Assembly: GCF_028372415.1 (NCBI RefSeq)
Contig: NC_092874.1
Coordinates: forward strand, 240,352,069-240,416,068
DNA from: Notamacropus eugenii
Lineage: Eukaryota; Chordata; Mammalia; Diprotodontia; Macropodidae
Direction of reading: 5' to 3'
DNA: 64,000 nt
Shown: positions 12,011 through 24,722 of the stretch, piece by piece
Numbering within the stretch: position 1 is the stretch's first letter
How the letters are laid out: each line of letters begins with the position of its first letter
Program-made: the position numbers and the translations under genes
Notes under the pieces: generated by a model
The model's database searches: none
What the model was told of the DNA's origin: nothing
What the model saw: only the letters and a program-made list of their open reading frames with translations

Positions 12011-14090
12011 ATGGGGAAATTCTCTTCAGTTCCTAAGAACTTGACTTTGGGTTGTCTCTTACAAAACTGGAAAAAAATTAGCTTCTCTAAAGAACTTAAA
12101 AAGGAAGAGTTGGTGTTCTTTTTGCAACACACTGTGGCAAAGTGTGGCAAACACACTATATCACCTGTATCACCTGAAGGACAACGAAATGTGGCCCATG
12201 TTTGGGACCTTACAATGTAAAACTCTTTTACTTTTAGAATTATATTGTCTCCAAAAGGAAAAATGGCCTTACATAAGGGCCTTTGTCAAACTCTTTCAGG
12301 ACCCCATTCTCAGAAAAGATTGTAAGATGCTTGTAGCTAGAGCCGCCCCACAAAAGGGAAATGGGGGTGAATTGGATGTTTTGGATGATCCCCTGTTTAT
12401 GGCTCCTAGGGTCTGGACCTCACCTCCTTTCTTACCTCCGTTATCGCCATCTGAACCCCTATCCCTTCCCCAATCCTCCCTGAGCCCTCTTCCAGCTCCC
12501 CAACCTCCTACTGCTCCCCTACCTCCCCTAAGCCCTCCTACCTCCCCCACCCCCGGCCACCCCTTCCTTCCCTTGGTTTCCTTTACATTTTCCTTTACCC
12601 CAACACCCCTCAATTCCTGCCTCATTTACCTATATCTCCTCCCATGGCCCCTTTCCCCTTGACTACTCCTGCTCAGTTCCCAGCCACGGGTCTTGCCAAG
12701 GGGTCTCCCTCTGCAGTCCCTCTTGCTGGGGCAACATTCACTCAGGCCTCAGGCCCCACTCCCATGGCACTCCCTGAGGCATGTCCCCCTTTCACCCCTA
12801 CTCTTCCTCAAGTACCAGCAGATCTTTCCCCTGCCAGTGAGTGGGTTGTGCTAAGTAGCTAGTGTTCTCTTTCACAGGTTTATTGCTTTTAGAATCCATT
12901 CCAAGATGCCAATCATATGCTTTAGCCAAAGTTTTCATGCAAATGCAGCCTAATCCAGTTCAGCAGGCATTCACCAGCCCCTCCCTCACAAGAAGTGGAA
13001 CTTTTTATCTCTCTCTAACCAAGCCTCTGCCGCCAAAGCACCTTTGAGGTTTTTTCCCTTGAGGGAAGTGCATGCTCTGTATCTCATTCAGGTTAAAGAG
13101 AAACTGAGGAGATATTCAGAAGACCCTACTAGGTTTACTGAGGGTTTTAGGGACATATCCCTACAATTTGAACTTTCTTGGAAGGATCTGCATATTCTTT
13201 TCTCTGCCTGTTGTACCATTGAGGAGAAGGGGAGTATTTGGAAATATATCCAAAAGTTTGGGGATTGTATGGCTAGCAATAATCCCATAAAATACCCTCC
13301 AGGAACAGCTGCTGTTCCCAGTAGTGACCCAGGATGGGATTATCAAAAGATTGAAGATAGAGGAAAGAGAGACCTTATGGTAATTTGCCTGTTAGAAAGT
13401 CTGAAAACTGCATTTCAAAAACAAGTAAATTTTCAAAATATTAGGGAAATCACTCAGGGAGAAGAGGAAAACCCTGCCCTTTTTCAAGACTGGCTAGTAG
13501 AAGCTATTAAAAAGCATACGAATTTGGATCCTGACTCCACAGAAGGGGCAGCAATCCTTAGCACGTATTTTATTAATCAGTCTGCCCCAGATATTGGAAG
13601 AAAACTGCAGAAATTGGCAATGGGACCCCAAACACCTCAGGCCCAATTACTGGAGACAGACTTTGGAGTCTTTAACAACAGAGGCCTTGTTGCAGCAGAG
13701 GAAAGAGAATGAAGGGGAAGGGCCAGGGCCAGGGAGCATGCTCAATTCTTGGCTTCTGCCTTGACCACGAAAAGACCCAGGTAGCGCTCCTCCAGGGCGC
13801 CCCCTTGGAGGAAGTTTGGCTACTTGGGCAGTGGGGAAACCTGCTTTCATTGCCACGAGGAGGGTCACTGGTCCAAGGAGTGCCCCTCCAGGGCGCCCCC
13901 CCAGAGGGAGCCCTAGAACCAGCACCTGTGGAACCGTGCCCATGTGACCAGGAGGGAAATTGGAGGAAAGACTGTCCTTCAGGTTGGAAAAGTGGTGGAG
14001 CTGCCCCCCAGTACCCCAACCTCCAGTCTTCTCAAGACTTGGAACAACAGGAAAGCCTGGGTGCTGGCAGTGCTCCTACTTTCTCTACCT
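12011..14090 (+). pseudogene. gag: gag of the older ERV (matrix, proline-rich, capsid, zinc knuckles), broken
   Basis: Gag forms the retroviral core. The likely start is the ATG at 12011, whose product begins MGKFSS, a myristoylation-type matrix start. A frameshift near 12140-12180 moves the matrix into another frame (matrix-like to about 12400). Then come a proline-rich stretch with a PTAP late-domain motif (12507-12518), a 110-bp foreign insert (12835-12944) ending in stops, and a capsid frame open from 13044 to 13712. The capsid frame contains a major-homology-type segment (QGEEENPALFQDWLVEA). The nucleocapsid follows in another frame with one perfect knuckle CFHCHEEGHWSKEC (13842-13883). 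A second knuckle near 13938-13975 is decayed: its first Cys spacing is short and His is replaced by Asn. At least three frame changes and the insert make it non-functional. The capsid pattern and single-ORF order fit gamma-like ERVs. Confidence 0.85.
12835..12944 (+). repeat. 110-bp copy of upstream host flank inserted into gag
   Basis: Identical to 11024-11133, same orientation, 1.8 kb away. It interrupts gag between the proline-rich region and capsid and introduces stop codons. There is no poly(A) or target duplication, so it is not an ordinary retroposition. A templated repair insertion or an assembly error would explain it. Confidence 0.85.
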
Positions 14091-14181
14091 CTCTCACCAA
14101 GCCCTGGGCAAAAACAAAGGCTTCTAACATGGCTAAATTCTCTGTTTTAACCAGTTACTCTGACCCTGCCCTACCCATAAC

Positions 14182-14412
14182 TTGACCCCTAGGGTCAGAG
14201 GCATTGAAAGGAAAACTAAGGAATGTCTCCAGACTTATCCCCTCCCCAGCCTACTTGAGGATCTGTTGTTTAAACACTCCTTCCTTATGCCCTCCAACCC
14301 TGTCCCCTTGCTGGGAAGGGACCTGATGGTGAAATTGGACAGCCAATTTTCTCTAGTTAATCTTCCCATCTCCTTTTTCCTCTGTTCACTAAATCTCCCC
14401 ATGTTCACTTGA
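14182..14412 (+). pseudogene. pol: protease C-terminal remnant of the older ERV
   Basis: The frame contains NPVPLLGRDLMVKLD, which matches the conserved end of retroviral aspartic protease (the 'LLGRDLL' block just before RT in gamma-like Pol). The catalytic DTG part upstream (14000-14180) is not recognisable. It leads directly into the RT frame that starts at 14409. Confidence 0.6.
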
Positions 14413-15436
14413 GAATGTGGGAGATAGTCGAGCCAATTGTTTGGGGTCTGGGAATTCTAGGGCAAGCTACTTCTGCCACCCCAGCCATTGTTTGTCTCCT
14501 ACATCCTAAAGTGCTTCCCCATCTCAGCCAGTATCTGATTAAGCCTGAGACCTGGGAAGGACTACAACCTTTAATTGAAAAATTCCTCAAGTGTGGAATC
14601 CTTGTTCTTTGTTCATCTCCATGCAACACTGCAATTGTTCCCACAAGAAAGCCTAATGGAGAATGCTCACAGTTTATTTTTGCCTTAGAATGGACTCTTC
14701 CTGGGAAATCAGGTCCATATCAGCTAACATGGACAGTGTTGCCCCAAGGGTTTCCAGATAACCCTCATTTATTTGGCCAGGCTTTGGGAAGGGATTTAAG
14801 GCACCAGAAACTAGCAGGTAGTAGCTTAATTCAGTATGTGCATGATAATCTTATTTATAGCCCCACTCAGGTGGATTCTTTGGCTGCCGCCACAGAAGCC
14901 CTTAATTTCTTAGGTATTCAAGGCTATCGGATCTCTTTGAAAAAAGTCCAGATAGCATGCCAGTCCATAAAGCTTCTGGGCCAAGAACTCACGCCCACCT
15001 CGCTCTCCTTAGCCTTTAAGGAAAGAAGGACAATCCTGTCTATCCCTGTTCCAGCCACTAAGAAACAAGTTCCAGTGTTTTTAGGCATGATTGGATTTTG
15101 TAGACTCTGGATTCCTAATTTTGGTTTTGTTGCTAAGCCCCTTTATGACCCTACTAAGGGCACTGACTCAGACCAGGCTAAAGCTTCTGAGACTCTGAAA
15201 ACTAATTTGACCACTACCCCATCACTAGACCTACCCAACCTGGGAAAACCTTTTACTCTGTATGTTGATGCAAGGAGAGGACAGGCTTTGGGAGTCTTAA
15301 CCCATTCCTTAGGACCTGACCGCAGGACAGTTGATGTTTTTATTTACTCAAAATATGCTTCCCTTGTTCTACATGCCCATGGAGCAATCTGGAAAGAAAG
15401 GGGATATCTGACAGCAAAAAACTCTCCTATCAAACA
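14409..15436 (+). pseudogene. pol: reverse transcriptase and partial RNase H of the older ERV, catalytically dead
   Basis: RT copies viral RNA to DNA. Visible in order are the fingers (CGILVLCSSPCNTAIVPTRK), the palm block YQLTWTVLPQGF, the active site as YVHD (14835-14846) where the family has YVDD, the thumb/connection (FLGMIGFCRLWIPNFG), then the connection/RNase H block TLYVDARRGQALGVLTHSLG. The first catalytic Asp region is missing through an internal loss after KPNGE. Near 15390 the reading jumps to a mid-RNase H piece (ERGYLTAKNSPIKH), so most of RNase H is deleted. One active-site Asp is replaced by His. The open frame runs on to 15614 but is no longer pol-like after about 15436. Confidence 0.85.
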
Positions 15437-15490
15437 TGCCCTTCTTTGTTTTGGCCTTGCCATAGTCATCTTTAATTCTCTGCAGAGAAA

Positions 15491-15811
15491 TTGTCTTTTA
15501 TGCCAGGGAAATTGTTTTTCTTTATATTCCTTTTGTGCCTGTTTGGTGTGTGTTTGCCTAACGTCATTGCCAGGTTTGTCTTTTCCAGAGAGCAAGCCAT
15601 CAACTTCCGGATGACAGTCCAGGCTATATACCAACCTCCAACTGAATCCAAGGTCTCCAACCCACTGGACCTGTCACCTCTGATAATGTTTAATATAAAA
15701 TTTTGGAATAATCTCTTTGTTCTCTCTGAAGTAAACTCAGAGAGTGCCTCTTCCTATGTCAGCAAAAGCCAGCCAAGGCCGACTCTACACTCCTTAAGGA
15801 GACCTTTAACC
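15491..15811 (+). pseudogene. possible env N-terminal scrap of the older ERV
   Basis: This frame opens with a short leader followed by the hydrophobic run LFFFIFLLCLFGVC, which could be an Env signal peptide. It then reads into a region without recognisable motifs, until the younger provirus interrupts it at 15812. Integrase, which should lie between RNase H and env, is absent. Past the insertion, 23439-24067 would hold the rest of env, but it is riddled with stops. This is an inference from position and hydrophobicity only; a chance frame is possible. Confidence 0.35.
15808..15811. repeat. 4-bp target duplication of the young provirus, left copy
   Basis: AACC, matching 23435-23438. A 4-bp duplication fits gamma-type integrase. 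Confidence 0.8.
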
Positions 15812-16259
15812 TGAGTGGGATAGACTTGGTGAAGACTCCTCAGATTGTGGTTTTCTCCCAAGGGTGAGGTGGGGCCTGGAGGCTCGGGGCTGCAGTGTTT
15901 TTGGAATAGAATAGTTCCATATAAGGCATAAAACTGTGTGGTGTACTGGGGTCTCAATGATTGGACAAAACTTGCGTAATTCCTCGATGTCTTCATTTCA
16001 AAGGGATTGGTTAGATCTCGTGTCTAGAATGTAAGACCATATCCTCAGCTAATGAGGATAATGGTCAGTGGGGGGGAGGAGGGACTTGCGTTAGGGTTTA
16101 TAAATCACTGTCCTGATTTTTATCTTCGGCTTTCCTACTCCAGGTGAACTGCTGTGGGATTGTCCAGATTCTCGAGAATCGAATAAAACTCTTTTCTGTC
16201 ATCACTTTGAGAGGCCTCTGAGTAATTGATTTATGTAGGGACCTGAGCCATCCCACACA
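15812..16259 (+). repeat. 5' LTR of the young provirus
   Basis: 448 bp, starts TGAGTGGG and ends CCCACACA. It contains a TATA-like TTTATAAAT (16097-16105) and a poly(A) signal AATAAA (16182-16187), which place the R region downstream of about 16125. Confidence 0.9.
16097..16105 (+). promoter_or_regulatory. TATA-like box of the 5' LTR
   Basis: TTTATAAAT, about 80 bp upstream of the AATAAA signal at 16182-16187. The spacing is that of a gamma-type LTR promoter. The same element lies at 23272-23280 in the 3' LTR. Confidence 0.6.
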
Positions 16260-16262
16260 GTT

Positions 16263-16281
16263 TGGGGGCACGTACCGGGAT
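16263..16281 (+). promoter_or_regulatory. primer binding site, tRNA-Pro-like
   Basis: TGGGGGCACGTACCGGGAT starts three bases after the LTR end. It matches the complement of the tRNA-Pro 3' end (TGGGGGCTCGTCCGGGAT) except for one substitution and one inserted A. Confidence 0.7.
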
Positions 16282-16566
16282 CTGTGACCTTTCTGAGAGA
16301 CGGCTGACAGCTCAGTCCAAGGACTTGGGCGCCCGTGGGGAGATTTCCCCATTGTCCTTGAAAGGAGCTGCCGGGCCTCCCTCTCTGCAAGGTAACGACC
16401 TGAAGCAGAGGAACTCAGTGAAGACAGAAAAGAATAGAGATAAGGACTCCAAAGACTCCGAAGCTGTGAAGTGTGTAAAAATGCCAACCGGTTGGTGTTG
16501 AAGTTTGCAGTCAGGCAACTTGTACGCGTATACAACCCAGCGGTAAGCGCGGGGGGGGTCTGGGGG

Positions 16567-16877
16567 TCAATTCGTTGAGTCTTAGATAGACTCGGGGAGA
16601 AGGTGACGACTCCCAACCAAATTAGTGGACTGCGGGACCCCAGGGTGAAGGGCCCCCCCAAAAACGTTTGCTGGGTGACTGTTGGTGACGGGCGACCCTC
16701 ACCTGAGAGCTGGCAAGAGAAGCTAGCAAGGGAGCTAGCATAATTCGTTGAGTCTCAGACTCGGAGGTGTTGGCGACAACCCTCGACCAAAGGAGCCAGC
16801 AGGAGAAGCTAGCAAGGGAGCTAGCATAATTCGTTGAGTCTCAGACTCGGAGGTGTTGGCGACAACCCTCGACCAAA
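16567..16877 (+). repeat. tandem repeats in the viral leader, ending at the gag ATG
   Basis: An 86-bp unit occurs twice back to back (about 16706-16791 and 16792-16877). A diverged third piece begins with 'aattcgttgagtct' at about 16569. The two main copies each carry two GCTAGC palindromes. The position, between primer site and gag start, is where gammaretroviruses keep dimerisation and packaging signals. Confidence 0.75.
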
Positions 16878-17140
16878 ATGGGACAAAAGCAGTCCAGGAA
16901 TAGAGCTTCGGAGTGGAGTCAGGAAGAGATACCGGTAAATAGTCCCTTGGGAAACTGATTACAAAATTGGCATGAATTACCAAAATTATAGAGAAAAGAA
17001 TGTAGAAGAAGATGATTAAGTACTGTTGTTTCATATGGGGTGAAAAGACATTGGAGGAGGAGGAGGCACAATCTGGCCCAAATATGGTTCCTTTGAGGAC
17101 TGGGTGTGACAAAAATTTAAACCTATATGTCCTATTCTAT
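16878..17140 (+). pseudogene. gag: gag matrix start of the young provirus, truncated
   Basis: The ATG at 16878 follows the leader repeats and encodes MGQKQSRNRASEW, an N-myristoylation-type matrix start. A TGA at 16956 ends the frame after 26 codons, and a TAG follows at 16989. Beyond these, matrix-like segments continue in shifted frames (MIKYCCFIWG near 17010, and WPKYGSFEDWV near 17075), so the reading is recognisable to about 17140. Nothing like capsid, the major homology region or a zinc knuckle follows. It cannot make Gag. Confidence 0.7.
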
Positions 17141-19942
17141 TCTGTTAAATGTTTGTCTGTATATGTTGTGTTGGTATTTCTGTGTGAATGAAAGTCTGTG
17201 TGTCTCTGTTTTTATCTGATAAGGTTGTAAATTTAGCCAGCCAGCCAGCAGGAGCAGAAAGGCTGAGCTGAACTGTCCTTGAAATTCCTGTTACTCCCTT
17301 TCTTCAACCCCTCCAGACTAGTTTCAGAGGGGTGGAGGGACAAGGAGGGAGAGAAAAAAAAAAAAAAAAATTCTTTTTCCCTCAGACCTAAGAGGCATGC
17401 TAGCAACCAATTAACCATTTCCTGCCTCACCCAAAAGAAGAAATTTTAGTGTAATGGGAAATAACAGAAAGTTAAGTGAATTCATTCTGGTCGTATTTGG
17501 AATTGTGAATAGGTGAAATGTGTCATTCTTAATTTAATGCTTCAGATAGGTTAGAATTTATTAAAGTTTGGTGGAAGTAAGCAGAAGATTAGAAAGTAAA
17601 AAAAAACTCAAGTAAGCAACTTAGAGCTGAGAGTTTTGGATTTAGGTTTAATTAGATCAATATATTTGATGCCAGACAATGTATTTAAAGTAAAAAGATA
17701 ATAAGTTTAGGTTTTTCTTTTTCTTTGCAGGGCGGGGGGCCAGGTGGTCTGGGAGCTCCAGGAATGGTCTTGATGGGAGTGGCCAGTAAACTGGAGATTT
17801 GGACTGATAGAATTAAGAGTGGGAAGTAGAATAGACTTGGGTATAGTGATAAGAGTGGACCTTAGGAGAGCCGGTTCACGTGGAAAAACCAAGGAGTTTT
17901 CAAGGTGAGGTTTTCCAAGGCCTTTAGACAAATGGGACTAAAACTTTTTGGGGTAATGGACAAAGGTCCCAACTTGGAGTGAGATCTTTACAGGTTACAA
18001 AATGATGTAAAAGCAATTAGTATTAAAACAATTAACTGAATTAATTACTGAGACTAAATCAGAGGCATCTTCAGTTTGGGGAAAGAATTTCAGTCTAATT
18101 TTCTTAGAGGTAGGTAGCCTCTGGTAATATTTGGCATTGAAAGTTAAATGATTGTTTTGATTTGAATTCATTACATGAACATAAAAATTCAAGTTAGTGT
18201 TTGAACTTATCACATGTGTAGCTCATTCTTTTAGATTGAGCAGGGTTAGAAAGAGATAAAGTAGTTTGGGAAACAGATATAAATCTATTAGAGCAATGAC
18301 TTATGATTGTTATTCAATCAGGAACTAGAACATGTATAGGAAGGCATGTAGGCTACTTAGACCTGCTTCAAAGATGTTCCTTGGCCAATGTGAAATTAGT
18401 CATGTCTGAAACTGATTATTGGAGCTTGCTATTTTAAGATTTTTGTGGGACTATTAACTGACTGTTCTTCTGAGTCTAACTCCAGGTGTGGATAGCAAGA
18501 GAGGTGGTCTGAGCCACTGATCCATGATGCCAATAAGCCTGTGAGATGCTGGTATGAACTGCAAAAAGGTGATCTCATGGGAAGGTCGGGAGAGCGACTG
18601 TTCAGTCTGGGCTGAGGTAGGATTTTCCTGACTCAATTTCCCCACTGACACCTGGCAGACTTGAAGCCTGGCTGAATGCCAGTTGACAACCTACTCCTGC
18701 CTGGAACTGACGTGAAGTAAGGGAGATGTTTCCCTGCAATGTCCCTACTCTTAGTGGCAAATTCCTAAAATCAGAAGTTTTGTAAGTAATAATACCAGAT
18801 CTGTTGAATAATAGATTGTTGGTAGAGGAACATCTGAGGTTAAGTCTAACATTGAGCTAACAGGTTTAGGACTTTAGAACAACAACAATAAGTTAGGGTC
18901 CTCTAATTCTTAGTAATGGTGTGGAGATGATTAGGTTAAGGGCTTGTGAGGCTAGCATGCATAGTTATTATTTTGTCCTAGTTGGTTAATGCTAAATGAA
19001 AAATGGTTTGTAGACTATATTGTAAATGCTTTAAAAGAAGCATCACATGATCAGAAGTTGGAATTGTTTTATGATGTGATATGCACTGTGTTAAGAATGA
19101 TTATTTATTGTATTTATATAAGTACTGGAGCCTGGTGTTGACTCCTTAGTGAAATCTCATCTTCCTAATGAGGGAATGAATAATGACTTGCTGTGAAATG
19201 TAGAAGCTGCATTTTAACGTGAATTTCTTATTTTTCTTTAAAAAAAAAAATGATAATTTGTCAAAGTTTCAATTTCGATTTTTGTAAGAATGATAGGATT
19301 GGTAATCTAAGATGGTATTAAGTTCAATTCTGTAGGAGAGTGGACATCTGGATTTCTACAAGAAGATAAAGAAAAGAAGATGCTGAGATGCTGTGCTGAC
19401 GACTGTTTGAAGGAGCATCCAGATCAGAAAATTGCATAAGATGATATTTCTCCCCAGACTGCTGTATGAGATGGAACCTCTAAATGGACAGTTCATTAAT
19501 TTAAATCTCTGTATCTGTACTTATGACAAGGGGACTGCCCCCCTGTAATTTGCTAATGCGTCAGTCAACTTTGCTTTCTTCCCATATTCATATAAAAAGG
19601 AAGATAGATGAAGGGAAGGATTCATAAGGGAAAGAATGTGAAGAGGTATTTATTGATTGGATTTAGGTATGGAAAAAGGAAAAATAAGAGGAGGGGAGGA
19701 ATATGGGTAAGTTGAACCTTGAACTATCTATTCCCCCATACCAATTCAGAAAATGTTTAGCATGATTGGGAAGCCAGTAGACAAAGTTATGGAAGGTTAT
19801 TGCATTTAAAATTTTAAAGTTGTTTACTTTCATTTATAATTATTGCTATTAGTTAATAACTCTCAAGCTTCATGCTTGGAGACACACTTTGTCAGTATTA
19901 AAGCTCCATTTGAAGCGTGTGTGAGAACACACAGAATTTGGA
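17141..19942 (+). other. 2.8 kb of unidentified non-coding DNA replacing gag-CA/NC, protease and RT
   Basis: No retroviral motif was found in any frame between the matrix remnant and the RT connection (whose homology resumes at about 19943 with KAWPTCIQAVAATALLVEE). The longest frames here are about 75 codons. The base composition is AT-rich and unlike the flanking viral coding DNA, with A- and T-runs. No LTR, SINE or poly(A) plus target duplication that would mark a later insertion was noticed. A strong acceptor-like site (17709-17731) and a donor-like site (after about 17907) bound a possible 176-bp exon. Possible origins are captured host transcript, recombination with another element, or extremely decayed viral sequence; these cannot be separated by eye. 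Confidence 0.6.
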
Positions 19943-20881
19943 AAAGCATGGCCAACTTGCATACAGGCTGTGGCAGCCACTGCCCTCCTAGTAGAAGAAA
20001 GTAGAAAAATCACTTTTGGAGGCTGTTTGATTGTGAGTGTACCTCATCAGGTGCGATCTATCTTAAATCAGAGAGCTGGGAGATGGCTGACAGATTCAAG
20101 AATTTTAAAGTATGAGGCCATATTATTAGAAAAGGATGATTTAATACTGTCCCAAGACCATAACCTTAATCCAGCTAGTTTTCTGTCAGCCTCACCCGAG
20201 GAGCCTGTAAATTTGGAACACTGCTGTTTGGATATAACTGATTATCAGACAAAAGTGCGGGAGGATTTACAAGAATCCCCTTTGTTTGAGGGAGTGAATT
20301 GGTTTATAGATGGGTCCTCCGGGGTGATAGAAGGAAAGAGACAGAATGGGTATGCCATAATAGATGGAGATAGAAGTTCTCTAGTACAAGCTAGTAGCTT
20401 ACCTAAGACTTGGTCAGCACAAACTTGTGAACTGTATGCTTTGCATCAAGCTTTAAAATTATTAGAAGGGAAAGAAGGATCTATATATACAGACTCTAAG
20501 TATGTTTGGGGAGTAGCACATGTTTTTGGAAAAATTTGGGAAGAAAGAGGAATGGTAAATAGTAAGGGAAAGGAACTAGCTCATACCACCCTACTGACTA
20601 AAGTATTGAGTAGTTTACTGTTGCCCAAAGCAATTGCTATTGTGCATGTGAAAGGACATCAAATAGGGAACACCTTTGAGGCTAGAGGTAATCGCCTTGC
20701 TGATGAGGAAGCGAGGAAGGCTGGGGAAAAGGAACCTGGACAGACTGCAATGTTGGTATTAATTCCTACTTTGCCTCCCAATCTCCCCTCCCCATCCTAT
20801 ACTCAGGAAGAGAAGAAAAAGGCTCAAGATGGGAGCCAAGGAGACAGAAGGAGGGCGCTGGTTTCTCCCAGATGGCCGTGA
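19943..20881 (+). pseudogene. pol: RT connection and RNase H of the young provirus
   Basis: RNase H removes the RNA strand during reverse transcription. The frame begins with the RT connection block ATALLVEESRKITFGG. It then shows all four RNase H acidic positions in order: WFIDGSSGV (Asp), TCELYALHQA (Glu), SIYTDSKYVWG (Asp) and GNRLADEEA (Asp). The linker NPASFL precedes it, as in gamma Pol. No stop interrupts about 300 codons, so this segment is better preserved than the rest. The RT fingers and palm upstream are missing, so no working polymerase could be made. A frameshift near 20830-20880 separates it from integrase. Confidence 0.9.
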
Positions 20882-21660
20882 GGTACTGACCAAGGCAGGG
20901 ATGAGACGAGTCTTGCAATACCTACATCAAGGTAGTCATTGGGATGTCCAAAACCTGTGTGATGCTATATTGACCAAGTTTGTGTCACCGGGCTTATACA
21001 CACTGGCCAGACAATTGGTGGAGGGTTGTCTGATTTGTCGAAGGACGAATAAGACTGCTCAACGCCACCCCCCCCAAAGGGGGCAGGCCCCCGGGATACA
21101 GACCCTTCCAAAGCATTCAGGTGGACTTCACCGAACTACCATCAGTGGGCAGTCTCAAATACCTGCTAGTCATAATAGATCACCTGACCTCATGGGTAGA
21201 AGCCTTTCCCTTATCACGAGCTACTGCCTTCTCAGTTAGTAAGATATTATTGGAACAGATAATTCCACGGTATGGCATGGTGGAGAGGATAGATTCGGAC
21301 CAAGGCACTCACTTTACTGCCAAGGTTTTGCAGTCATTAATAAAAGCACTGGAGATTACTTGGGAGTTTCACACTCCCTGGCATCCTCCTTCCTCAGGCA
21401 AAGTAGAAAGAATGAATCAGGAAATTAAGAAACAACTAACTAGACCATTAGCTCTCTTAAGGATTAGAACAAAACCTCGCAGAGATGTAGGCCTATCTCC
21501 TTATGAGCTTCTATATGGGCATCCCTTCCCCGGGAATACAGGAAGGAAACTGGGATCCAATTGTTGATAACAAGGATAGATTTGTAAGGGAATATGTATT
21601 TGCTTTGATGAAACATTTGCATGAATTACGACTTAAGGGACTTATTGCTCAGACTCCCCC
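20829..21660 (+). pseudogene. pol: integrase of the young provirus, frameshifted
   Basis: Integrase joins viral DNA to host DNA. The N-terminal zinc domain is read from 20829: YLHQGSHW (H-x3-H) followed by GCLICRR (C-x2-C). A frameshift at or near the C-run around 21067 moves the catalytic core to another frame (21121-21567). The core carries VDFTE, DSDQGTHF and GKVERMN, with 35 residues between the second Asp and Glu, i.e. an intact DD35E triad. Just after, about 20 residues of the usual core end are missing (KKQLTRPLALLRI), and the GPY/F-type C-terminal domain is cut by stops from about 21565. Decayed readable pieces extend to about 21660, where env begins. Confidence 0.88.
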
Positions 21661-21689
21661 GTGAGGTTTTGTGGTGCACAAGTTTAACC

Positions 21690-22941
21690 CTAGCTCGTAT
21701 TGATTGTGTCAGTATGCAGATAGATGGGATCAGAACAGTATTACCTGTTCAGATGGTAGTGTGATTCCCTGTACCCATTCATTTTTCCCATCCTCTTCAT
21801 ACGAAGAGAGAACAAAAGGGGAATATCATGAAAGTTGTGGGTATAAGTTTTACAACCCCTCTGATCCCAGAAAACCATGTGAAGGGGGGTCACGACCATG
21901 ACAATTTGTGGAGTTGTATATATATGAATAGTATAAATGGGTATGGAAGTGGGAGAATGGAACACATAAGATGATGTGAAATACTTTCCGGCTGTGGATT
22001 ATAGAGTAAGACTGTTTCTAGAGGAAAATCCTGCTTTGAGAGGGCATTATTGGATATGTGGACAGACAGCCTATACTCACCTTCCGCTTAACTGGAGAGG
22101 TGTTTGTTACATTGGATTGGTGAGACCTAAATTCTTTTTCTTGCCTGAATCAGGGAAACAGCATCTAGGGGTCCCTCTATATGATGATCTAGCAAAAAGA
22201 AAGAGGAACATCGACACCTCCCTCACTCAGACTGAAAATGCAAATGGGTGGGGTGATACTTGGCCTCCTGAGAGGATAATCAGAGAGTATGGGCCTGCAA
22301 CTTGGGCTCAAGATGGGAGCTGGGGTTATAGAACCCCTATATATCTATTAAACAGACTAATCAGACTTCAAGCAGTAGTTGAAATTATAACCAATCAAAC
22401 AGCAAAGGCTTTGGACTTACTGGCTGATCAAGCCACACAAACTAGGGAAGCAGTACTGCAACATAGATTAATCTTAGATTATTTACTTGCAGAAGAAGGA
22501 GGAATTTGTGGGAAGCTCAATTTATCTACATGTTGCTTAAAAATTGATGATAATGGAAGGATAGTGAAAGAGATCACCAAGAATATCAGGAAGGTTGCTC
22601 ATGTTCCCATACAAACTTGGGGCTCCCCTTTCAATACATCCTGGTGGTCCTGGTTTGAGGGGAGCTGGTGGAAGAGGTTACTGTGGTTTGGCCTTATAGC
22701 AATTAGTGGTATTGTATTACTTCCTATTTGTCTACCTTGTTTGATTTCACTAATTACTAAAATAGTTAGAAATTCTTTACTAAAACTTGTTAGAGTAGAA
22801 GAAAGGACTGAAGGAGCCATTCGACTGATGATATTAAAAAAGGAAGGTTGGGTACCTGTGGAGACAAGAGACATGAATGATCCTGATTGGGATGAGGAGA
22901 TTAATAGACAGTGTGAGATTATGTTACAGAACTTTGGTTAA
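21690..22941 (+). pseudogene. env: env of the young provirus: SU largely deleted, TM frame open
   Basis: Env mediates receptor binding (SU) and membrane fusion (TM). Only short SU pieces remain, in two frames (21704-21901, and the start of 21976-22941); no signal peptide is seen. The 321-codon frame from 21976 shows a partial SU disulfide motif (WIC, its first Cys replaced by Tyr), a furin-type site KRKR (residues 74-77), a heptad region, and an immunosuppressive-type segment (about 162-178). It ends with a Cys motif C178-x7-C186-C187, a Trp-rich stretch, a membrane span (about 235-260) and a tail of about 60 residues. No hydrophobic fusion peptide directly follows KRKR. It has three N-glycosylation sequons. 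The Cys spacing is seven, not the six usual in gammaretroviruses. It ends 29 bases before the polypurine tract. Confidence 0.85.
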
Positions 22942-22970
22942 AACATCCGTGAGAAGTCTTCAGGCTGATA

Positions 22971-22986
22971 AAATAAGAGGAGGGAT
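22971..22986 (+). promoter_or_regulatory. polypurine tract of the young provirus
   Basis: AAATAAGAGGAGGGAT, directly before the 3' LTR. It is the plus-strand primer for reverse transcription. Confidence 0.75.
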
Positions 22987-23434
22987 TGAGTGGGATAGAC
23001 TTGGTGAAGACTCCTCAGATTGTGGTTTTCTCCCAAGGGTGAGGTGGGGCCTGGAGGCTCGGGGCTGCAGTGTTTTTGGAATAGAATAGTTCCATATAAG
23101 GCATAAAACTGTGTGGTGTACTGGGGTCTCAATGATTGGACAAAACTTGCGTAATTCCTCGATGTCTTCATTTCAAAGGGATTGGTTAGATCTCATGTCT
23201 AGAATGTAAGACCATATCCTCAGCTAATGAGGATAATGGTCAGTGGGGGGGAGGAGGGACTTGCGTTAGGGTTTATAAATCACTGTCCTGATTTTTATCT
23301 TCGGCTTTCCTACTCCAGGTGAACTGCTGTGGGATTGTCCAGATTCTCGAGAATCGAATAAAACTCTTTTCTGTCATCACTTTGAGAGGCCTCTGAGTAA
23401 TTGATTTATGTAGGGACCTGAGCCATCCCACACA
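22987..23434 (+). repeat. 3' LTR of the young provirus
   Basis: 448 bp, 447 of them identical to the 5' LTR. Poly(A) signal AATAAA at 23357-23362. Followed by the AACC target copy (23435-23438). Confidence 0.9.
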
Positions 23435-23438
23435 AACC

Positions 23439-24067: not shown

Positions 24068-24722
24068 TGATGGGATTCAGACTCAGGGAGCCTCCTAGAG
24101 CTCCTCTTGAGTCTCCCCACTTAACATGGCTTTTCATGCTCAAATTGAATTCTCCTTGAATCTCCCCACATAACCTGGCTTTTCATACCCAAATTGAATT
24201 CTCCTTGAATCTCCCCACTTAACATGGCTTTTCATACTCAAATTTAATTCTCCTTGAATCTCCCCACATAACCTGGCTTTTCATACCCAAATTGAATTCT
24301 CCTTGAATCTCCCCACTTAACCTGGCCTTTCATACTCAAATCTGTGGCCATTATCTGTTACCACTTGATTGCCACACCTGCTTCCACCCAAACCCTCCCT
24401 TGTCTGATATCTCCTGTTTGCCTCTAACTGTCTCCAACCCTCCCGAATCCCCTCCTCCTTGGACTTCTCCTCAGGACCCTCCCTGAACCTCTCCTCCCAT
24501 CACCCTGAACCACCAGACCACCTCCAGATCCCTCTTATAGTCTTTTTTGTATTTAGTTCCATCTCCCCTCCAGGAAGGTACTGAGATTCAATCCAGCTCA
24601 GACTCTGTCTAGCTGAGATTCTATCTGGTCTGCTTGTGAATACAGGCGTTACAAATGCTTAGGCTCCTTAAGAGCCAACCCAAGATGATGAATCCTTAAT
24701 AAACTTTGTTTTCTTTGGCTTT
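24068..24722 (+). repeat. 3' LTR (U3-R) of the older ERV
   Basis: It starts at TGATGGGA, after a purine tract. U3 carries five 49-bp repeats and a proline-codon-like C/T-rich stretch. R begins near 24580 and matches 11377-11519. The poly(A) signal AATAAA is at 24698-24703 and the transcript ends at GGCTTT, after which the copied poly(A) begins. The left edge is an inference. Confidence 0.65.
24112..24341 (+). repeat. 49-bp tandem repeats in U3 (about 4.7 copies)
   Basis: Units start at 24112, 24161, 24210, 24259 and 24308, each beginning TCTCCCCAC. Units 2 and 4 are identical; 1, 3 and 5 share 'cttaac'. The period is therefore also 98 bp. Tandem repeats in this place usually act as LTR enhancers. 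Confidence 0.85.

What the first reader, a model, noticed from the sequence alone, without database searches (positions are those of the whole stretch)
17141..19942. A young provirus carries 2.8 kb of unidentified DNA where capsid, protease and RT should be
Seen: matrix-like coding fades at about 17140 and RT-connection homology resumes at about 19943. Nothing retroviral is recognisable between, yet both LTRs, the primer site, leader and polypurine tract are present. Known: mouse ETn and rat/mouse VL30 elements lost coding regions, in some cases to unrelated sequence, and still spread using helper proteins. Inference: this may be an undescribed marsupial ETn-like non-autonomous ERV lineage, or a one-off capture of host RNA.
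Basis: partly seen in the sequence, partly recalled or inferred. Interest (0 to 1): 0.75.

Follow-up and report, generated by a model that had tools for sequence, protein, structure and literature searches.

The report
Gene-less endogenous retrovirus family
The odd DNA in this provirus is shared by at least 40 places in the same animal genome (probably a wallaby): it marks a family of young retroviruses that lost most of their genes to unrelated DNA and still spread, most likely by borrowing proteins from gene-bearing relatives in the same genome.

Summary
The provirus (15812-23434; 448-bp LTRs, 1 difference in 446 bases compared; 4-bp duplication AACC) shows no recognisable retroviral sequence from 17131 to 19941. 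It is not a one-off: in the window's own genome all 40 scored matches (of 5056 loose candidates) are 95-100% identical, and the 20 fetched next in rank are all proviruses with the same LTR, LTR-identical in 12 of 21 pairs, nearly all with their own target duplications. This is a recently active gene-less ERV family. Three related proviruses carry protease and RT (one also shown to carry capsid) where the window has the unknown DNA. Against them the foreign DNA resolves into two pieces: 0.6-0.8 kb after matrix, and 3.3 kb inside RT between two copies of the 8-bp target AAAAGGAT, as an insertion would leave. The window belongs to a sub-branch that later lost 1.2 kb including the left junction. 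LTRs of gene-bearing and gene-less copies are intermixed, which fits mobilisation by relatives; that step is inferred. The kind is known (ETn/MusD, bovine D-type, koala recKoRV/PhER); I found no description of this family. The source of the foreign DNA was not found. Host: probably tammar wallaby.

The parts
15808..15811 (.). target-site duplication AACC, left copy
   Evidence: read; matches 23435-23438
15812..16259 (+). 5' LTR, 448 bp, TG...CA
   Evidence: same LTR in 20 of 20 sister proviruses
16263..16281 (+). primer binding site, tRNA-Pro-like but imperfect (relative L032 has TGGGGGCTCGTCCGGGAT, a recalled Pro-type site)
   Evidence: sequence; tRNA assignment recalled
16260..16877 (+). untranslated leader, with an 86-bp tandem duplication at 16707-16877 (1 to 3 units in sister copies)
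16878..17130 (+). matrix (gag 5' end) remnant; reading frame stops after 26 codons
   Evidence: 81-86% DNA identity to relatives L032-L034 up to this point; no Pfam hit of its own
17131..17729 (+). foreign piece A: non-coding, no match to gag-pro-RT of relatives; L029, L035, L036 have about 210 bp more at its poly-A run
17730..17741 (+). G-rich deletion scar of the short form; long forms have about 1.23 kb more here (95 bp of RT, left AAAAGGAT, first 1.1 kb of the insert)
17742..19941 (+). foreign piece B: right 2.2 kb of the 3.3-kb insert in RT
19942..19949 (+). right copy of the duplicated RT target (AAAAGCAT here; AAAAGGAT in 19 of 21 RT-joined copies read)
19943..20881 (+). RT connection and RNase H (open for 303 codons from 19970; no sign of protein constraint among copies)
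   Evidence: PF00075 E 1.9e-21; PDB match
20829..21567 (+). integrase remnant in two overlapping frames
   Evidence: PF17921 E 2.8e-07 and PF00665 E 3.2e-15
21704..22941 (+). env remnant (TM part open, 321 codons from 21976); the env 5' part present in L029-L031 is missing here
   Evidence: PF00429 E 2e-10
22971..22986 (+). polypurine tract
   Evidence: sequence
22987..23434 (+). 3' LTR
23435..23438 (.). target-site duplication AACC, right copy

Best explanation
The provirus is one member of a young, multi-copy, non-autonomous class I (gammaretrovirus-like) ERV family. An ancestral gag-pro-pol-env provirus received a 3.3-kb foreign insert in the RT connection region (8-bp target duplication AAAAGGAT), and the rest of gag, pro and most of RT were replaced by a second foreign piece of 0.6-0.8 kb. 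The result keeps what is needed in cis (LTRs, primer site, leader, polypurine tract) and codes for no complete set of replication proteins. It is transcribed, packaged, reverse-transcribed and integrated by proteins of relatives that share its LTR and leader. The window copy belongs to a sub-branch that later lost 1.23 kb at a G-rich micro-repeat. Shown: architecture, copy family, target duplications, youth, gene-bearing relatives, the junctions. Inferred: helper action, order of the two foreign acquisitions, DNA-level insertion.
For: 40 of 40 scored matches in the own genome at 95-100%. 20 of 20 loci have LTRs at both ends (3' LTR cut by the fetched end in L009 and L011), leader, MA remnant, foreign pieces A and B, and env. 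LTR pairs: 0 differences in 12 of 21 proviruses (two of these cut), at most 5 of 446; of 19 with both flanks readable 17 have a 4-bp and one a 5-bp duplication, L018 has 3 of 4. Relatives: Gag_p30, RVP and RVT_1 in L034; RVP and RVT_1 in L032 and L033, where only one frame each was scanned. Target repeat: left AAAAGGAT in 18 of 19 copies read, right in 19 of 21 RT-joined copies, uninterrupted AAAAGGATGGCC in 3 of 3 relatives. LTR of gene-bearing L032 is 7.3% from gene-less L029; L029 is 12.1% from the window. L034's LTRs differ by 6 substitutions and 2 gaps over 451 columns, L029's by 6 of 450, so both kinds integrated in a similar period. Short form lies on one side of a branch, support 96/91.
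Against: Helper action was not tested. Only 4 candidates for gene-bearing relatives were among the 40 scored loci, 3 were fetched, their frames are interrupted in places, and none has an LTR near the youngest copies (13.8% for L032, 21.3% for L034, 25.5% for L033 from the window), so the helper of the latest burst may be another, unseen element. The 8-bp repeat could be microhomology at a template switch; the insert shows no terminal repeats or poly-A tail. The total copy number is not known.
Confidence: 0.82

Rival explanations
1. The foreign DNA comes from an older non-coding marsupial ERV of the PhER type (koala), so the family is a recombinant between two retroelements, or the local counterpart of PhER itself, not a capture of host RNA. 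(Rival on the source, compatible with the main account.)
For: PhER is described as an 8-kb element with 478-bp terminal repeats, a primer site, limited env similarity and no coding capacity (PMC5696478 passages), close in plan to L029/L030. The recKoRV central region is reported to match loci in koala, wombat and opossum (PMC8161083 passages). The cattle ERVK paper states that bovine C/D, MusD/ETn and KoRV-A/recKoRV all swap a central segment for an old piece of retroelement (PMC10924933 passages).
Against: No PhER sequence was available, so no alignment was made. The foreign pieces show no retroviral domain and no internal direct repeat.
Confidence: 0.35
2. The foreign pieces were taken from a host RNA by template switching during reverse transcription, and the AAAAGGAT repeat is microhomology. 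(Rival on the source.)
For: CpG observed/expected of the foreign pieces is 0.06-0.15, host flanks 0.08-0.10; piece B has more G over C (+0.26) than any of 241 host windows of its length. Piece A ends in a splice-acceptor-like stretch (sequence).
Against: CpG does not separate the pieces from env (0.14) or RT/RNase H (0.19), and G over C is also high in MA, RT/RNase H, env and LTR (+0.19 to +0.33), while piece A (+0.22) is within the host range. The 3.3-kb piece leaves and re-enters RT at one site with an 8-bp repeat, which two independent switches would not favour. No source locus found.
Confidence: 0.3
3. The segment is decayed gag-pro-RT of this same virus.
For: It lies in the right place, and 95 bp of RT remain in the long forms.
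Against: Apart from that scrap, blastn and tblastx of pieces A and B against L032-L034 gave only short stretches at E 0.036 or worse, while MA and RT/RNase H on either side are 81-90% identical.
Confidence: 0.02
4. One-off capture or later insertion in this single provirus.
For: None found.
Against: At least 40 loci hold the sequence; 20 of 20 loci have it in the same proviral frame.
Confidence: 0.01

Closest known systems
ETn / MusD (mouse)
   Same: LTR element without coding capacity, amplified and mobilised by a coding relative (PMC6466679 passages)
   Different: MusD is class II; this family is class I; other host, other foreign sequence
VL30 (rodents)
   Same: class I non-autonomous element co-packaged with MLV (PMC6466679 passages)
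   Different: rodent; sequence relation not tested; foreign DNA here sits between MA and RT connection
Bovine ERVK[2-1-LTR] D-type
   Same: central segment swapped, LTRs and gag/env ends kept, defective copies outnumber competent ones (PMC10924933 passages)
   Different: ERVK group, cattle
PhER and recKoRV (koala)
   Same: PhER 8 kb, 478-bp repeats, env trace, no coding capacity; recKoRV a KoRV with its centre replaced (PMC5696478 passages)
   Different: sequence relation not testable here; recKoRV has KoRV ends, this family has an LTR shared with its own gag-pol-bearing relatives
MEGrv 1-3 (marsupial gammaretrovirus-like ERV clades)
   Same: class I marsupial ERVs, LTR 281-486 nt (PMC11334065 section 7)
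   Different: those clades were defined by gag/pol/env genes; relation to L032-L034 not tested

Membership tests
non-autonomous LTR retroelement | paired LTRs, primer site, polypurine tract, target duplication | tested here: met
non-autonomous LTR retroelement | many copies at independent sites without coding for its own replication proteins | tested here: met
   no capsid, protease or RT core found
non-autonomous LTR retroelement | mobilised in trans by a coding relative | not testable with these tools
   coding relatives with related LTR and leader exist; action not tested
ETn | derived from MusD, a class II element | tested here: not met
   RT/RNase H best matches are MLV-type and L034 carries Gag_p30, class I features
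VL30 | sequence relation to rodent VL30 | not tested
   no VL30 sequence searched
PhER | about 8 kb, LTR near 478 bp, primer site, env trace, no coding capacity | tested here: met
   spans 7.1-9.0 kb in 21 proviruses, LTR 448 bp, env trace; PhER description; plan only, no sequence
PhER | sequence homology to the koala element | not testable with these tools
   no koala genome or PhER sequence available
recKoRV | KoRV LTRs and ends | not tested
   no KoRV sequence fetched; the LTR is related to that of its own gag-pol-bearing relatives

The most novel reading that the evidence does not exclude
The gene-less centre is an old marsupial lineage of non-coding retro-DNA (shared by descent with koala PhER) that has outlived several sets of LTRs and helpers by recombination: between sub-branches here the LTR differs by 10-12% while the non-coding centre differs by about 2-5%, as if the ends were exchanged with successive gag-pol helpers. 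Against it: MA (5.4-5.5%) and env (6.7%) are also less diverged than the LTR.
Probability: 0.2. Interest if true: 0.75.

Novelty: new member of a known kind. Interest (0 to 1): 0.52.

Why it matters
It adds a young gene-less/gene-bearing ERV pair, probably in a wallaby, next to the mouse, cattle and koala pairs, which likewise replaced the centre and kept the ends. Here gene-bearing relatives, intermediate forms (long and short centre, with and without RNase H and integrase) and the original junctions are still present in one genome, so how such parasites of retroviruses arise can be read step by step. Identical LTR pairs suggest that it moved very recently.

Tried and rejected
Intron retention: the insert starts with a splice-donor-like AG/GTATTTG, but cutting at GT...AG would not give back the relatives' RT sequence; rejected by inspection. 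Nested LTR element: no direct repeats within or between the foreign pieces, only a 16-bp self-palindrome. Common repeat: no match of pieces A or B at E 0.01 in 89,461 bases of host flank; elsewhere in the window the best is E 0.043 for the segment and E 0.002, 32 bp, for the 1.23-kb part. Rfam, phage and viral-contig searches: nothing. Constraint on the centre: piece B differs by 4.66% and the env part by 6.71% between window and L029, too close to argue for selection. Protein constraint on RNase H: against the window, 0-3 synonymous and 1-7 replacement codons per copy in 19 copies, a stop in one (L022), and 11 of 19 have lengths that break the frame. Nearest named proteins of the RNase H frame and of L032 pol are reptile, bird, echidna and shark entries at about 50-65% identity, which names no family. 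Not achieved: total copy number, independent copies of the insert, more gag-pol-bearing copies; the whole-genome search answered 4 requests and was unreachable for the rest.

Full report
WHAT IS THERE. The provirus runs from 15812 to 23434, with 448-bp LTRs that differ at 1 of 446 compared sites and a 4-bp target duplication AACC. After the 5' LTR come a tRNA-Pro-like but imperfect primer site (assignment recalled), a leader with an 86-bp duplication, and a matrix remnant whose frame stops after 26 codons. From 17131 to 19941 no retroviral family is recognised (one window piece gave a sub-threshold OTU hit, E 0.13). RT connection and RNase H follow (PDB match E 1.2e-56; PF00075 E 1.9e-21), then integrase in two frames, an env TM remnant and the 3' LTR.

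IT IS A FAMILY. The window's own genome is held (3.45 Gb, 254 contigs). A search with 17141-19942 gave 40 matches out of 40 scored, from 5056 loose candidates: 7 over the full length, window included, and 33 from about position 590 on, at 95-100%. All 20 have LTRs of the same type at both ends (the second cut by the fetched end in L009 and L011), leader, MA remnant, pieces A and B, and env. LTR pairs are identical in 12 of 21 proviruses including the window (two of these the cut ones) and differ by at most 5 sites in the rest; of 19 with both flanks readable 17 show a clean 4-bp duplication, one a 5-bp one, and L018 matches at 3 of 4. At a recalled rate of about 2e-9 per site and year this means integrations up to about 3 million years old for these 21, and about 7 for the older-branch copy L030 (12 of 441). 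The copies are independent and young.

LONG AND SHORT FORM. Fourteen of the 20 have about 1.23 kb more between pieces A and B. The window and L009-L014 lack it; on the tree of piece B (21 rows) they form one side of a branch (support 96/91), and the junction is a G-rich micro-repeat (GGGCCAG on both sides), so the short form is most simply a later deletion.

GENE-BEARING RELATIVES. A search with the RT-RNase H DNA gave 40 scored loci out of only 104 candidates: 36 at 97% or more (two of them partial) and 4 at 88-90%. I fetched 3 of those 4 (L032-L034). All three have a related LTR (71-83%), leader (72-85%), MA (81-86%) and RNase H (88-90%). Between MA and RNase H, L034 has Gag_p30, zinc knuckle, RVP and RVT_1; L032 and L033 have RVP and RVT_1 in the one frame each that I scanned. 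Their frames are interrupted in places; I describe them only. L034's LTRs differ by 6 substitutions and 2 gaps over 451 columns. The primer site of L032 is the recalled Pro-type site; the window's differs from it.

THE JUNCTIONS. Set against these relatives, the left break is at 17130 in MA; piece A (17131-17729) has no convincing similarity to their gag-pro-RT by blastn or tblastx (best E 0.036 and 0.098). In the long forms piece A is followed by 95 bp of RT (84-88% to the relatives), which ends at AAAAGGAT; then come 3.3 kb of foreign DNA; then AAAAGGAT again and RT continues. In the relatives AAAAGGATGGCC is uninterrupted (3 of 3). The left copy reads AAAAGGAT in 18 of 19 proviruses that matched the probe (L030 has one change), the right copy in 19 of 21 RT-joined ones (the window and L031 have one change each); L023, L035 and L036 did not match the right-hand probe, and the short forms have no left junction. 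An 8-bp repeat at both ends of a piece that sits at one point of the gene is what a DNA insertion leaves. The insert has no terminal inverted repeats, LTRs or poly-A tail that I could see, so the kind of insertion is open.

OLDER BRANCHES. L029 and L030 have LTRs 9.6-12.4% from the window's but pieces A and B only 1.7-4.7% away; MA (5.4-5.5%), the env part (6.7%, L029) and L030's leader (5.7%) are also closer than the LTR, L029's leader (12.1%) is not. They lack RNase H and integrase: the insert's right end is joined to the stretch just before env. As they hold the RT scrap and the left repeat, I infer that the form with RNase H is the older design. L035 and L036, picked as low-ranking matches of the 1.2-kb part, have the same plan up to the fetched end, with the right end of piece B, RNase H and integrase missing. 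LTR distances mix gene-less and gene-bearing copies: L032 (with genes) to L029 (without) 7.3%, L029 to the window 12.1%. This is what sharing of templates and recombination with helpers would give; it is not proof, and no gene-bearing copy seen has an LTR near the youngest gene-less ones.

HOW IT WORKS. Cis signals are kept, trans genes are gone, copies are many, young and independent, and relatives with genes share LTR and leader type. The simplest account is complementation in trans, as reported for ETn by MusD (PMC6466679, passages). The RNase H frame, though open in the window, shows no protein constraint among 19 copies. Helper action itself was not tested.

COMPARISON. The pattern of replaced centre and kept ends is known: a cattle paper states it for bovine ERVK C/D, MusD/ETn and KoRV-A/recKoRV (PMC10924933, passages). 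In koala, PhER is an 8-kb element with 478-bp repeats, an env trace and no coding capacity (PMC5696478, passages), like L029/L030 in plan; I had no PhER sequence to align. What I saw of papers: PMC11334065 (outline with abstract, passages, section 7); PMC6466679, PMC10924933, PMC5696478, PMC11703332, PMC8161083, PMC12032406 (passages). In the listings (no paper), 35, 45, 71 and 80 no title or shown start of an abstract describes this family; the library lacks most subscription journals.

HOST. PMC11334065 Table 2 gives the tammar wallaby assembly mMacEug1.pri an N50 of 489.7 Mb and 3.4 Gb, in 314 scaffolds; contig C4, where the window lies, is 489,668,034 bases and is the N50 if no larger contig than those I saw exists; G000 has 254 contigs. 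Tammar wallaby is therefore likely, not proven.

SOURCE OF THE FOREIGN DNA. Not found. It is AT-rich, CpG-poor like the host flanks but also like this virus's env and RNase H, with G over C on the sense strand as in most of the virus, matches nothing at E 0.01 in 89 kb of host flanks, and has no coding signal.

Noticed in passing
window 13044-15614: Remains of an older ERV (RVT_1 at 14409-15611, E 3.1e-09; a gag-like frame at 13044-13712, by eye only) end just upstream of the young provirus, which seems to have landed in or beside it.
   Followed up: partly
window 24106-24341: 49-bp tandem repeat, 4.8 copies, strongly C-rich on the + strand.
   Followed up: no
G000 C26:1.25-2.63 Mb (L031 and four others): Five copies within 1.4 Mb of a 14.3-Mb contig, 98% to the window segment; perhaps a Y-linked amplified region.
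   Followed up: no
window 16707-16877 and L012, L014, L020, L021: The 86-bp leader unit is present once, twice or three times in different copies.
   Followed up: no
P0001: A 303-aa protein 99% identical to the window's RNase H frame is held from an ENA source, on a 3478-base contig, so the family also turns up in another public data set.
   Followed up: no
L016 8946-9308: A second, opposite-facing LTR (90%) lies about 10 bases from the 5' LTR of this provirus.
   Followed up: no
L010-L013, L015-L028: Recurrent deletions in integrase and env, and a 108-bp stretch of env missing from the window, mark further sub-branches.
   Followed up: partly
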